From assembly GCA_024398055.1 (NCBI GenBank), contig CP073749.1:1-64000 (forward strand): a stretch of DNA of 64,000 bases. The letters are read 5' to 3'. This document shows, one piece after another, positions 52,066 through 60,688 of the stretch; position 1 is the stretch's first letter; each line of letters starts with the position of its first letter. Position numbers and translations under genes: made by a program. The notes under the pieces are model-generated. The model was given only the letters and a program-made list of their open reading frames with translations. It had not been told where the DNA came from and ran no database searches. Source of the DNA: a bacterium SCSIO 12741. Lineage in GTDB: Bacteria > Bacteroidota > Bacteroidia > Flavobacteriales_G > Salibacteraceae.

Positions 52066-53544
52066 TTAGTCGAGAAAGGCAATCGATTTTTTGATCAATA
52101 CATGCAGCTCGGTGTCCTTTTCAACGAAGGGCACCGTCTGTCTGTATACACTCACCCATTCCTCCAATTCCGGAGAACTTTTCAACGGCCTTCTAAACTC
52201 CAAGGCCTGAGCTGCATTCAGTAATTCAATTCCCAACACCCGCTGAAGGTTTTTTACCACCCGCTGACACTTGGTAGCTGCATTGGCGCCCATAGATACG
52301 TGATCTTCCTGTCCATTGGATGAATCGATGGTATCGACGGATGAAGGCGTACAAAGCTGCTTATTTTGGCTTACAATGGATGCAGCGGTGTACTGAGGAA
52401 TCATAAAACCAGAATTCAAACCTGGCTCAGCCACCAAGAAGGCCGGCAAACCACGTTGACCTGAAATCATTTTATATACCCTTCTCTCCGAAATAGAGGC
52501 CAATTCCGCACAGGCAATACTCATTTGATCAAGTACCAAGGCTAAGGGCTGTCCATGAAAGTTTCCACCGGAGATGATCTTATCCTCTTCTGGAAAAATG
52601 GTAGGGTTGTCGGTAACCGCGTTAATTTCATTTTCAACCACAGACAGGATATACTTCAAAGCGTCTTTGCTCGCCCCGTGAACCTGGGGGACACAGCGGA
52701 AGGAATAAGGATCCTGAACATGGGTTTTGCTCTGCTCAATAATTTCACTTCCAATCAGGTAATCTCGGATACGGGTGGCTGTTTCAATTTGTCCCTGGTG
52801 ATTGCGAATGTGGTGCAAACTCGGATCAAAAGGCTCGGGTCTACCGTCAAACGCATCTAAAGACAGGGCTGCAATCTTATCTGCCTTTTCAGATAGTTCG
52901 GTTGCCTTCAATAAGTTCCAAACGGCCAAGGCACTCATAAACTGAGTTCCATTTAGCAAGGCCAACCCTTCTTTAGATTGTAGCTCAATGGGTTCCCAGC
53001 CAATACTTTCCAAAACATCAGCTGCTGGTTGAATCTTTCCTTCGAAGGTTACCTCTCCTAAACCGAGAAGTGGCAAAGCCAAATGAGCCAGAGGGGCTAA
53101 ATCTCCAGAAGCACCTAAGGACCCTTGCTCGAAAACTACGGGTAGCACATTGTGGTTGTAGAAATCAATTAATCGCTCTACGGTGATCAATTGAACCCCG
53201 CTGTGGCCGTAAGAAAGACCTTGAATTTTCAAGAGCAACATCAATTTGACTACCTCAGGATCTACCTGATCACCGGTTCCACAGGCATGAGACATGACCA
53301 GGTTTTTCTGCAACTGGCTGAGGTCTTCCCGAGAAATCGAATGGTTGTACAGAGATCCGAATCCGGTATTGATTCCGTAAATCGGCTCTTCCTGGGTATC
53401 CATTTTACGATCCAGGTATTCGCGACAGGCTACAATTTTGTCACGGGCGGAATCACTTAAATGCAATAGTCGCTCCGATTGAATGATGTCACGAATCGTG
53501 GTTAGGGTTAGTCGTTCTGAGGAGATCAAATGATGAACCTTCAT
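52066..53544 (-). CDS. hutH: Histidine ammonia-lyase HutH
   Basis: HutH removes ammonia from histidine to give urocanate, the first step of histidine breakdown. The 492-residue protein has the self-cyclising MIO triad A145-S146-G147 in GSLGASGDLAPLAH. S85-H86 in LVMSHACGTG marks a histidine-type rather than tyrosine-type active site. Other motifs are GINTGFGSLYN and NFHGQPLALVLDQ. It is the last gene of ettA-hisS-hutH, ten bases from hisS. No hutU, hutI or hutG is in the window. Confidence 0.93.
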   Translation of the reverse strand: MKVHHLISSERLTLTTIRDIIQSERLLHLSDSARDKIVACREYLDRKMDTQEEPIYGINTGFGSLYNHSISREDLSQLQKNLVMSHACGTGDQVDPEVVKLMLLLKIQGLSYGHSGVQLITVERLIDFYNHNVLPVVFEQGSLGASGDLAPLAHLALPLLGLGEVTFEGKIQPAADVLESIGWEPIELQSKEGLALLNGTQFMSALAVWNLLKATELSEKADKIAALSLDAFDGRPEPFDPSLHHIRNHQGQIETATRIRDYLIGSEIIEQSKTHVQDPYSFRCVPQVHGASKDALKYILSVVENEINAVTDNPTIFPEEDKIISGGNFHGQPLALVLDQMSIACAELASISERRVYKMISGQRGLPAFLVAEPGLNSGFMIPQYTAASIVSQNKQLCTPSSVDTIDSSNGQEDHVSMGANAATKCQRVVKNLQRVLGIELLNAAQALEFRRPLKSSPELEEWVSVYRQTVPFVEKDTELHVLIKKSIAFLD

Positions 53545-57672: not shown

Positions 57673-59667
57673 TTACTTCAAGCCGGATAACACGTAAGAA
57701 AGATTCGGATGAATGTCTACCGGATCATTGAAAGGCTTGGTTACATAATGAGGTTTTGACAAAATCTTCCGCTCAATCATCTCATTAATCGTATCGTGAA
57801 ATTCCAAAGAAGTCTTCCCGATCAGCAGGTTATCCAACTTTACCCCCGCTTTGTACCGCTTAAGCACCCGACGGAAACCTTCCAGATACAAATGCTCTTT
57901 AGTAAATCCGCCTCCACGGTGAACACGAGTACTCAGGTTAAACGCCCGGTCCCGATCCAATTGAAAATCTTCGTGCAGCATCTTGAACGTTTCCACAAAG
58001 GATGCTCCATCGACCACCGACTTTACTGCAAAAACCCGATGAGCCAATTCCCATAACCGAGTCATTCCCATACTTCCCGAAAGCAATTCGCTAAGCACAG
58101 CCAATCCTTCCTGCGTCATGGTATTTCTCGGCAAGCCTACATTAAATATTTTAAGGGGTTGAATATTGGAATTCATAGTGGTTACCATGTGCACCCCTAT
58201 TTCATGATTTCCTAAAGCCTGTAGAGAACGCTGGCTAAACTGCGCGCCTTTCTTCAAAACAACCGTTTTTCGAGCATTCAATACCGTTGCTGGTGAAACT
58301 ACCCGATCGCTTACCTTAATCTTAAATTCGAACCCATACTCGTTACCCAAAGACCGAAATAGGTCTGAAGCGTCTTCCACATCCAAGTCGGCATTTTCTT
58401 CTACCGTTTGAAAATCCGGGCAGTACAGCAAATAGCGGGCATTGTCAATATCCTTGGCCGAAGGCTCTCCAAAATAGCGAAGGGAGTTAAACTTAAACTT
58501 GGAAGTACCCAAAGTGGACAGCATATCAATTTTGTCCATGTAAGCCTGAGCTACTTCCTTGTACAGGTTTTGGATAGAAATATCACGAATATCCTCAATG
58601 GGCAATTGAGACAAGGTACGCTTCAGTCGCCAGGTATCGAGGTGAATCTGTTTGTAATGAAACTGAGGAATCCGCTGGTAGTTGGAAGCATAAAAACGCC
58701 TTCTTTCCTGTTCCAGATTTACCGGGTTGACGAATTCCAACAATTCAAAATCGCGTACCGTTCGATACAGAAGGCGGTCAATTTTAGAGATGGTCTCTGA
58801 AAGGGTTCCACTCAACAGCTCCGATTTCTTCTTGATTCGGTACGTGGTCTTCTTCTTGGAAAACTGAGAGGTGTGGTTAAGAATAGCTCGCTTAAATCCC
58901 TGGTGCAGGGCTTCGATCACTTTTGGGAAACTCTCCCCGGTAAGTTCATCGCAATACACTTTCTTGACCTCAGTGGCGAGCACCAAAATATCCTCAAATC
59001 TCTTGGAGACATGCTCCAGTAGATATCCTCTGCCGTAGAAGATTCCGTTGATCTGGGTCAGGTTGTGGGTATTCGGCAATTTGATTTTGCTCAGCTCGTC
59101 TCTCCATTTTTCAACCTGAGCACCAAACTTGTGCTGGTCTACCCGTTCGCTTCCGATATTGAAAACAGGTGTTTCCCGATCGTGGCGTTTGTAGTTGTAG
59201 GAGTGAATGTCGTAAACCAAACCACCGGAAAAACGATCCATCATGGCTGCGCACAACGCGTCAATTACCTGGTAAAAAGCGGCATGTTTATCTAAACTCT
59301 GTTGTTTTTCCTGATCTGAAAGTGAGCGGGTCCAAACTTGTTTGCCCCAGGCTTCTTCAAAAACGGCGCCTTCTGGCCCCCGATTCAAATCGTATTCGTA
59401 GCGCGAATCCATGCCTTCGATGGTCATCGGGAAGGAACGGACAAAATCAATGGTATAGGGATCTTCCTCATACCATCTTTCGTATTCGCTAAGGGCACTT
59501 ATTTCTTCTAATTCCGGTCTCAATCCATGGCCATTGTGAATAGCGGCACATAGAAAGGGAACGTACTTTTCAATTTTTATTCGGAAGGAGCGGTCTTGAG
59601 AAATGGCCTCAAAGGTTTGGCCACTTTCTATTTTTTGGATGATCTCATCAACTGATAACCTAAGCAT
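57673..59667 (-). CDS. Fusion of N-formylglutamate amidohydrolase-like and DUF1704/MATCAP-like (QEGLA) metallopeptidase domains
   Basis: A 664-residue soluble protein with two enzymatic halves. The N-terminal half (about 35-280) has amidohydrolase landmarks: HNGHG (44-48), DSRYEYDLNRGP (87-98) and DIHSYNYKR (153-161). The C-terminal half (about 300-664) is DUF1704 (flavohemoglobin expression-modulating QEGLA family). It has the zinc motif HEIGVH (HExxxH, 488-493) and QEGLA at 519-523, whose glutamate may be a third ligand. DUF1704 also includes the vertebrate tubulin tyrosine carboxypeptidase MATCAP. It overlaps the ATP-grasp gene by eight bases, so it is coupled to a ligase. The substrate is unknown. 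Confidence 0.85.
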   Translation of the reverse strand: MLRLSVDEIIQKIESGQTFEAISQDRSFRIKIEKYVPFLCAAIHNGHGLRPELEEISALSEYERWYEEDPYTIDFVRSFPMTIEGMDSRYEYDLNRGPEGAVFEEAWGKQVWTRSLSDQEKQQSLDKHAAFYQVIDALCAAMMDRFSGGLVYDIHSYNYKRHDRETPVFNIGSERVDQHKFGAQVEKWRDELSKIKLPNTHNLTQINGIFYGRGYLLEHVSKRFEDILVLATEVKKVYCDELTGESFPKVIEALHQGFKRAILNHTSQFSKKKTTYRIKKKSELLSGTLSETISKIDRLLYRTVRDFELLEFVNPVNLEQERRRFYASNYQRIPQFHYKQIHLDTWRLKRTLSQLPIEDIRDISIQNLYKEVAQAYMDKIDMLSTLGTSKFKFNSLRYFGEPSAKDIDNARYLLYCPDFQTVEENADLDVEDASDLFRSLGNEYGFEFKIKVSDRVVSPATVLNARKTVVLKKGAQFSQRSLQALGNHEIGVHMVTTMNSNIQPLKIFNVGLPRNTMTQEGLAVLSELLSGSMGMTRLWELAHRVFAVKSVVDGASFVETFKMLHEDFQLDRDRAFNLSTRVHRGGGFTKEHLYLEGFRRVLKRYKAGVKLDNLLIGKTSLEFHDTINEMIERKILSKPHYVTKPFNDPVDIHPNLSYVLSGLK

Positions 59668-60688
59668 TGTCTACCGTTTGCCTGAACATGGCTTTGCGTT
59701 TTAGGGCTTCTTCCTTGTTCACAACAACCCCTTCAGCAAAGTCCAAAATTTTGGCTGCAATATTAGTGCGATTCAAGTTACTGATGGCTACTACACCGCC
59801 AGGACTGCACACATTTACTTCGATCAGTTTTCCATTGATAATATCAAGACCTACAAAATACAATCCATCGGCTACCAGCTTAGGACCGATAATCTCACAA
59901 ACCTTTTTCTCTTGCCTGGTCAAATGGTGTTTTTCCATACGGCCACCCGCCGACAAATTGGAGCGGATATCATCTTTTGCGGGAACACGGCGAAAAGCTC
60001 CCATGGGCTTTCCATTGAGCATAAGAACACGCACGTCACCTTGCTCGGCCCCTTCTACAAATTCCTGGATAATTACATAACTCTTCTCGCCATCCTTACC
60101 AGCGATGTAGAAGTCCAGTAGGGAATTGATATTCTGTGTCGCATTCTTTTCAATAACAATTACTCCACTTCCTCCCATACCATTGAGCGGCTTCATGATC
60201 ATCCGTTCTGATTTGGACTCCTGAATCACCTTCTTGAGGTACGTTTTGTTTTTGGATACATGAGTAACCGGAATGATCTCGTTGTTTGGATCATCAAAGG
60301 CAGCCGTATACAATTTGTTATTGGCCTCTCTCAGCCCTTGAATATCGTTCACAATGAACACATCATTTCTAACCGAATCCAGGAAATTAAGTGCTATGTT
60401 GTCAATCGGAGGATTGGCACGCATAAAGATGATATCGAATCCAGCAAGGGGTAACAATTGATCCCTAAACCTCACCTTCTTAAAAAAGGCTGAAGTTTTA
60501 CTGGCCACCTTATCCGCCTTGATAACGACCTGGCAAAAAGCCGACGTTACCGAATTACGAATAGTTAGAGCTCCGGGAGTGGTAATGGCCACCGTGTGCT
60601 TACGCAAGGCAGCTTCATGAACCATTTTTACAGTCGAGTCTCTGTCATCAGCCTGTTCCCAGGGATACATGATAAAGCAGATGTTCAT
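59660..60688 (-). CDS. Glutathione synthase-like ATP-grasp ligase
   Basis: A 342-residue ATP-grasp enzyme. The N-terminal preATP-grasp domain (MNICFIMYPWEQADDRDSTVKM) is followed by IIFMRANPPIDNIALNFL and INDIQGLREANNKLY-like (IVNDIQGLREANNKLY). The ATP-binding MIMKPLNGMGGSGVIVI, the QEFVEGAEQGDVRVLMLNG strand and the metal-binding GLDIINGKLIEVNVCSPGG follow. It resembles GshB (gamma-glutamylcysteine plus glycine), but no gshA is present here. The next gene codes for a peptidase/amidohydrolase fusion, so an ATP-driven addition to a peptide or amino-acid derivative is an alternative. First gene of this two-gene operon. Confidence 0.88.
   Translation of the reverse strand: MNICFIMYPWEQADDRDSTVKMVHEAALRKHTVAITTPGALTIRNSVTSAFCQVVIKADKVASKTSAFFKKVRFRDQLLPLAGFDIIFMRANPPIDNIALNFLDSVRNDVFIVNDIQGLREANNKLYTAAFDDPNNEIIPVTHVSKNKTYLKKVIQESKSERMIMKPLNGMGGSGVIVIEKNATQNINSLLDFYIAGKDGEKSYVIIQEFVEGAEQGDVRVLMLNGKPMGAFRRVPAKDDIRSNLSAGGRMEKHHLTRQEKKVCEIIGPKLVADGLYFVGLDIINGKLIEVNVCSPGGVVAISNLNRTNIAAKILDFAEGVVVNKEEALKRKAMFRQTVDNA

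What the first reader, a model, noticed from the sequence alone, without database searches (positions are those of the whole stretch)
57673..60688. ATP-grasp ligase coupled to an amidohydrolase-MATCAP-like fusion: a possible peptide-tagging and untagging system
The 664-residue protein joins an N-formylglutamate amidohydrolase-like domain to a DUF1704 domain with HExxxH (488-493) and QEGLA (519-523). DUF1704 includes vertebrate MATCAP, which removes the C-terminal tyrosine of tubulin. The ATP-grasp gene overlaps it by eight bases. In eukaryotes a tyrosine ligase with an ATP-grasp fold opposes MATCAP. A bacterial pair with the same two chemistries, plus an amidohydrolase, may add and remove an amino acid on a peptide or metabolite. 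The domain fusion and overlap are seen; the cycle is inference. Related amidoligase neighbourhoods may already have been catalogued.
Basis: partly seen in the sequence, partly recalled or inferred. Interest (0 to 1): 0.72.

Follow-up and report, generated by a model that had tools for sequence, protein, structure and literature searches.

The report
Peptide ligase with two-headed hydrolase
Many marine bacteria carry a conserved set of genes for one enzyme that probably joins an amino acid to a small acid and two enzymes that probably cut such bonds; one of the cutters is a relative of the human enzyme that trims tubulin tails, and the set's substrate is unknown.

Summary
The 664-residue protein joins an intact N-formylglutamate-amidohydrolase-fold domain (FG) to an intact MATCAP/DUF1704 domain (MC). 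The GshB-like ATP-grasp gene (AG) overlaps it by 8 bases. The genomic link is strong. Among 296 phylum genomes MC occurs in 16 and this AG class in 15, all 15 beside MC. In Pseudomonadota 13 of 14 AG genomes also have MC. FG-MC is fused in the window and fifteen related loci and split in flavobacteria. A second layout fuses MC to an inactivated FG copy and keeps a separate active FG. Two genomes without any FGase have an AstE/aspartoacylase homologue beside AG-MC. AG is not plain GshB: it forms its own clade, the window genome has no gshA family tested, and several proteobacteria carry a true GshB as well. The chemistry (make one amide bond, cut at two ends of a probably acidic substrate) is well inferred; substrate and cycle are not shown. 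Against an obligate add/remove cycle, AG and FG were lost together several times while catalytically intact MC stayed. The closest working precedent is RimK-RimB. Verdict: a real, apparently undescribed three-enzyme cassette, a new variant of the known ligase-plus-protease kind.

The parts
59660..60688 (-). AG: GshB-like ATP-grasp amide ligase, 342 aa (PRK12458 subfamily)
57673..59667 (-). FG-MC fusion, 664 aa
58963..59559 (-). FG domain, N-formylglutamate amidohydrolase fold (residues 37-235)
57685..58698 (-). MC domain, MATCAP/DUF1704 (residues 324-661)
59380..59391 (-). FG motif DLNR (residues 93-96), expected substrate-carboxylate site of this fold; D93 and N95 in 95/95, R96 in 94/95 relatives
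59203..59211 (-). FG motif D-I-H (residues 153-155), H155 probable metal ligand
59536..59538 (-). FG H44, probable metal ligand, 95/95
58969..58971 (-). FG E233, probable catalytic acid/base, 94/95
58189..58206 (-). MC HEIGVH (residues 488-493): H488, E489, H493 in 115/115 relatives
58105..58113 (-). MC QEG (residues 519-521): E520 third metal ligand, 115/115
   Evidence: third-ligand role after PMC10499314
59660..59667 (-). 8-base overlap of the AG stop and the FG-MC start

Best explanation
A three-activity cassette that makes and takes apart an amide bond on an acidic (probably glutamate-containing) small peptide or N-acyl amino acid. AG uses ATP to activate a carboxylate as an acyl phosphate and joins an amino acid to it (inferred from the GshB/RimK fold and conserved residues). 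MC, a metallo-carboxypeptidase of the MATCAP family, removes a C-terminal residue. FG, a metallo-amidohydrolase of the FGase/AstE/aspartoacylase fold, removes an acyl group from, or cuts an amide next to, an acidic residue. FG and MC act as one particle: fused in the window, or MC fused to an inactivated FG copy in the second layout. The set then sets the amount or length of the product, as RimB does for RimK. Shown here: the unit, its conservation, intact sites, and that AG is not GshB. Inferred: the chemistry of each step. Unknown: the substrate, and whether the hydrolases undo AG's bond or act before or after it in a linear pathway.
For: AG class and MC co-occur in 15/16 MC genomes and 0/280 others in Bacteroidota (Fisher 2.6e-24), and in 13 genomes of 398 Pseudomonadota (2.2e-12); the listed neighbours lie 36-2156 bp apart. 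68 of 80 named loci hold the full AG-FG-MC set. FG-MC fused in the window and 15 other loci; second layout FG / dead-FG-MC / AG, where the N-terminal domain matches FG at 97.8% over 209 columns (controls 0.1 and 0.5%) but lacks H44, DLNR and H155. Two genomes without FGase have an AstE_AspA homologue beside AG-MC. Metal ligands 94-100% conserved. AG keeps the GshB core (R86, K125, K160, D208, R210, R225, R233, D273, E281, N283 equivalents). TMCP2, a MATCAP homologue, removes polyglutamate (PMC10499314); FG's fold relatives include succinylglutamate desuccinylase and a poly-gamma-glutamate hydrolase. Precedent: RimK-RimB, also found fused (PMC11957791).
Against: MC persists alone after joint loss of AG and FG, with its site intact, in Arenibacter, Maribacter flavus, Croceivirga and Flagellimonas hadalis, so it has substrates not made by AG. 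Most proteobacterial MATCAP homologues lack AG. Opposed enzymes co-transcribed would idle without control, and no regulator gene is conserved. No carrier peptide or target gene is conserved nearby. Glutamate as substrate rests on family analogy only.
Confidence: 0.5

Rival explanations
1. Linear biosynthesis with a protecting group or carrier, like LysX/LysK: AG attaches an amino acid to a carrier or acyl-amino acid, it is processed, and FG and MC release the product in sequence.
For: All three genes are co-oriented and overlapping, which suits sequential steps; ATP-grasp plus metallo-carboxypeptidase is the LysX/LysK pattern (own knowledge); a rhodanese gene sits between AG and FG in many flavobacteria.
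Against: No LysW-like or other small ORF is shared at the loci; an AG homologue scores 40 bits against LysX, cut-off 276; no conserved modifying enzyme between the steps.
Confidence: 0.25
2. Reversible C-terminal tagging of a bacterial protein, with AG as writer and MC as eraser.
For: MATCAP proteins act on protein C-termini (PMC10499314); RimK-RimB does this on ribosomal protein RpsF (PMC11957791).
Against: No target gene is linked; FG relatives act on small molecules; AG resembles GshB (131 bits to 1gsa) more than RimK (about 43 bits); MC occurs without AG.
Confidence: 0.15
3. Scavenging or repair: FG and MC only degrade modified or acyl-peptides and AG is a loosely linked ligase.
For: MC-only lineages; many MATCAP homologues without AG; a sodium:dicarboxylate symporter gene lies close upstream in many flavobacteria.
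Against: The AG-MC association is very strong in two phyla and two layouts, and AG is lost with FG.
Confidence: 0.07
4. AG is an ordinary glutathione synthetase and the neighbourhood is incidental.
For: NCBIfam PRK05246 glutathione synthase 280 bits over cut-off 272.
Against: TIGR01380 237 under 299; no PF04107 or PF04262 in the window genome, and neither in 10 of 16 MC genomes; separate clade from 21 GshB, support 0.998, with T288 of GshB (21/21) replaced by G (97/98); several proteobacteria have both proteins; all 16 MC genomes have BshC of bacillithiol synthesis.
Confidence: 0.03

Closest known systems
RimK-RimB (Pseudomonas rimABK operon; PMC11957791, PMC10092738)
   Same: ATP-grasp amino-acid ligase encoded with a protease that removes the added residues; fused forms exist
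   Different: RimB is a retropepsin-like aspartic protease; here two metallo-hydrolases of other folds; the ligase is GshB-like; target unknown
MATCAP/TMCP1 and TMCP2 (KIAA0895L, KIAA0895; PF08014)
   Same: Same fold (Z 25.9), same HExxxH plus E metal site
   Different: No microtubule target; fused or paired with an FGase-fold domain and a ligase gene; about 25% identity over 293 residues
Glutathione synthetase GshB (E. coli 1gsa)
   Same: Same two Pfam domains and ATP, magnesium and acyl-phosphate core residues
   Different: Separate clade; T288 replaced by G; no gshA found; linked to peptidases
N-formylglutamate amidohydrolase / HutG, AstE, aspartoacylase
   Same: Fold of 2q7s (Z 24.7); H...DLNR...DxH...E pattern
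   Different: Only 22 bits in the stand-alone FG tested against HutG TIGR02017 (cut-off 279), none in the window; no hut operon linkage
TTL-MATCAP tubulin tyrosination cycle
   Same: ATP-grasp ligase opposed to a MATCAP carboxypeptidase
   Different: AG matches no TTL model; different partners; cycle unproven
Predicted amidoligase-peptidase neighbourhoods (Iyer et al. 2009, own knowledge; paper not held)
   Same: ATP-grasp ligases next to peptidases in bacterial operons
   Different: Whether this exact trio is listed there could not be checked

Membership tests
PF08014 MATCAP / TIGR02421 QEGLA | profile over curated cut-off | tested here: met
   321.6 vs 27 and 348.9 vs 338.65; related MC proteins fall just below the TIGR02421 cut-off
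PF08014 MATCAP / TIGR02421 QEGLA | HExxxH plus third ligand E in the EG motif | tested here: met
   115/115 relatives
PF08014 MATCAP / TIGR02421 QEGLA | fold of human MATCAP | tested here: met
   Z 25.9, 2.8 A, 293 residues
PF08014 MATCAP / TIGR02421 QEGLA | carboxypeptidase activity | not testable with these tools
   needs assay
N-formylglutamate amidohydrolase (PF05013) | profile over cut-off and fold | tested here: met
   48.9 vs 28.9; Z 24.7 to 2q7s
HutG N-formylglutamate deformylase (TIGR02017) | equivalog cut-off 278.75 | tested here: not met
   no match for the window FG; 22 bits for L029 FG
Glutathione synthetase GshB | equivalog TIGR01380 cut-off 299 | tested here: not met
   237 bits; PRK05246 is just passed, 280 vs 272
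Glutathione synthetase GshB | groups with GshB in a tree | tested here: not met
   98 AG form a clade without any of 21 GshB, support 0.998
Glutathione synthetase GshB | gamma-glutamylcysteine source (gshA) in genome | tested here: not met
   PF04107 and PF04262 absent from the window genome; completeness 95.9%, other gshA families not tested
RimK | rimK_fam TIGR00768 cut-off 143.4 | tested here: not met
   90.6 bits
TTL/TTLL | TTL domain match | tested here: not met
   no TTL model among the Pfam matches of AG
RimK-RimB type ligase-protease operon | protease removes residues added by the ligase | not testable with these tools
   needs assay

The most novel reading that the evidence does not exclude
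A bacterial forerunner of the tubulin-tail code: AG adds, and the MATCAP half of FG-MC removes, a residue at the C-terminus of a bacterial protein, with the FG domain trimming acyl or side-chain groups, so that MATCAP was paired with an ATP-grasp ligase before eukaryotes used it on tubulin.
Probability: 0.12. Interest if true: 0.88.

Novelty: new variant of a known kind. Interest (0 to 1): 0.58.

Why it matters
MATCAP entered biology as a tubulin enzyme; its bacterial relatives are annotated only as 'flavohemoglobin expression-modulating QEGLA motif protein'. A fixed partnership with a non-GshB ATP-grasp ligase and an acidic-amide hydrolase gives these proteins a testable biochemical setting, corrects the 'glutathione synthetase' label in bacillithiol-type genomes, and offers a second route, besides RimK-RimB, by which bacteria may make and unmake amide-linked amino acids.

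Tried and rejected
HutG/histidine degradation: a histidine ammonia-lyase gene lies 4 kb away in the window (52066-53544), but FG fails the HutG model and no other triad locus has the lyase. Ordinary GshB: see rivals. MATCAP-ATP-grasp fusion in G231 (956-residue open frame): the two matches are in different frames, so an artefact of a GC-rich open frame. Carrier peptide: no short ORF beside the window triad is shared with other fused-type loci. Anti-phage system: no PADLOC match. Viral carriage: no viral contig encodes a relative of P0001, close-relative search only. Sequence search of the FG profile against solved structures found nothing; fold search did. Literature: no held paper links DUF1704 or FGase with ATP-grasp; the most relevant review was not held.

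Full report
OBSERVATION. Both genes are as described. The 664-aa protein has PF05013 at 37-235 and PF08014 at 324-661, both over their curated cut-offs; the 342-aa protein is a GshB-like ATP-grasp. The AlphaFold model of the fusion is confident (pLDDT 93.8, pTM 0.90), and its halves match human MATCAP (Z 25.9) and N-formylglutamate amidohydrolase 2q7s (Z 24.7), well above the more distant folds below them in the list. Below, AG is the ATP-grasp, FG the amidohydrolase-fold domain and MC the MATCAP domain.

IS THE LINK REAL? In 296 evenly drawn genomes of the window's phylum, 16 have MC. The AG class is separable by score: 15 genomes at 396-472 bits, then a gap to 215 and below. All 15 are MC genomes and in all 15 AG is on the same contig next to MC (Fisher p 2.6e-24, not corrected for relatedness). 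The exception, G186, has a divergent MC with HEAYVH and no AG. In 398 Pseudomonadota genomes the gap is also clear (367 and above against 241 and below): 14 genomes have AG, 13 of them with MC; in the fourteenth AG lies at a contig end. Most MC genomes there (34 of 47) have no AG, so MATCAP homologues also work in other settings.

ANATOMY ACROSS GENOMES. Two layouts occur in both phyla. Layout A: AG, FG, MC in that order, as separate overlapping or adjacent genes in Flavobacteriaceae and as AG plus an FG-MC fusion in the window and fifteen related loci (fourteen of the 80 named ones, L037-L050, plus L026), and in several proteobacteria. Layout B: FG, then a 610-640-aa MC protein with an extra N-terminal domain, then AG. 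That domain has no Pfam match, but its profile matches FG at 97.8% over 209 columns while controls give 0.1 and 0.5%. It lacks H44, the DLNR motif and H155 in all 15 sequences: a dead FG kept as a partner of MC. Layout B MC proteins form a clade in the MC tree (support 1.0). Two loci have both layouts' AGs. Of 80 named loci, 68 hold the whole set, 7 MC alone, 1 AG-MC, and 4 FG-MC with no AG in the stretch held, three of them near a contig end.

TWO NATURAL EXPERIMENTS. (a) G053 and G273 have no FGase anywhere and instead carry an AstE_AspA-family gene beside AG-MC. AstE, aspartoacylase and FGase all hydrolyse N-acyl groups from Glu or Asp (established), so the swap points to an acidic N-acyl or amide substrate; with two loci this is suggestive only. 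(b) Seven loci, in Arenibacter, Maribacter flavus, Croceivirga and Flagellimonas hadalis, keep MC at the same syntenic place without AG or FG. AG is absent from all seven genomes and FGase from the four searched. Their MCs are scattered among triad-bearing relatives in the MC tree, so loss happened more than once (some branches are weakly supported), and their metal ligands are intact. Thus AG and FG depend on each other, while MC has a use of its own. This argues against an obligate MC-undoes-AG cycle.

ACTIVE SITES. MC: H488, E489, H493 and E520 in 115/115 sequences. FG: H44 and D93/N95 in 95/95, R96, H155 and E233 in 94/95; one proteobacterial fused FG seems degenerate. The order H...DLNR...DxH...E is that of AstE and aspartoacylase (own knowledge; metal ligands were not read from a structure). 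AG keeps the GshB core residues. It differs from 21 true GshB at T288 (G in 97/98), E124 (N in 94/98) and others, and forms its own clade, support 0.998.

AG IS NOT GshB. The window genome has neither PF04107 nor PF04262; ten of sixteen MC genomes lack both. All sixteen have BshC of bacillithiol synthesis. Several proteobacteria encode both a GshB and an AG. The database label 'glutathione synthetase' is therefore probably wrong. Not excluded: a gshA of an untested family.

MECHANISM. An ATP-grasp enzyme of this type makes an amide from a carboxylate through an acyl phosphate; MATCAP enzymes remove C-terminal residues, and the human homologue TMCP2 removes polyglutamate (PMC10499314); FG-fold enzymes hydrolyse N-acyl-Glu/Asp, and a phage poly-gamma-glutamate hydrolase shares the fold. 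Glutamate is the common thread, hence my best explanation: a make-and-trim cassette for an acidic peptide or acyl amino acid. The nearest working precedent is RimK-RimB, an ATP-grasp glutamate ligase encoded with a protease that removes the glutamates and sometimes fused to it (PMC11957791, PMC10092738). The enzymes here are unrelated to RimB, and AG fails the RimK family cut-off. Substrate, direction and regulation are unknown.

NOVELTY. Each family is known. I found no description of the trio in the held literature, but the one review likely to list it is not held. I file it as a new variant of a known kind.

Noticed in passing
G171:C42:9793-11599, G211:C5:281408-283239, G186:C3:209438-211257: A second FGase-family gene lies within about 0.4 kb of a GCS2 (PF04107) carboxylate-amine ligase, away from the triad: another amide ligase with FGase pairing.
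   Followed up: no
L032:13316-14791 (-): A D-Ala-D-Ala-ligase-like ATP-grasp domain fused to a SET domain, just upstream of the FG gene.
   Followed up: no
L171:8885-10991 (-): Two AG genes in tandem beside a layout-B MC; the second has an altered substrate loop (MHSDIHEPGT), perhaps a pseudo-ligase.
   Followed up: no
L051, L059, L065 and other flavobacterial loci, between AG and FG: A two-domain rhodanese gene (27 loci) and a small 110-aa protein without Pfam match (16 loci) are inserted inside the set; a sodium:dicarboxylate symporter gene lies close upstream in most Flavobacteriaceae.
   Followed up: partly
L022:8933-10204 (-) (G186): Divergent MATCAP homologue with HEAYVH in place of HEIGVH and no ligase partner in the genome.
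   Followed up: no
L173:7979-10973 (+): A fused FG-MC whose FG half scores low (117 bits) and appears to have lost active-site residues: an apparently independent inactivation.
   Followed up: no
window 52066-53544 (-): Histidine ammonia-lyase (hutH, over TIGR01225 cut-off), not linked to the triad elsewhere.
   Followed up: yes
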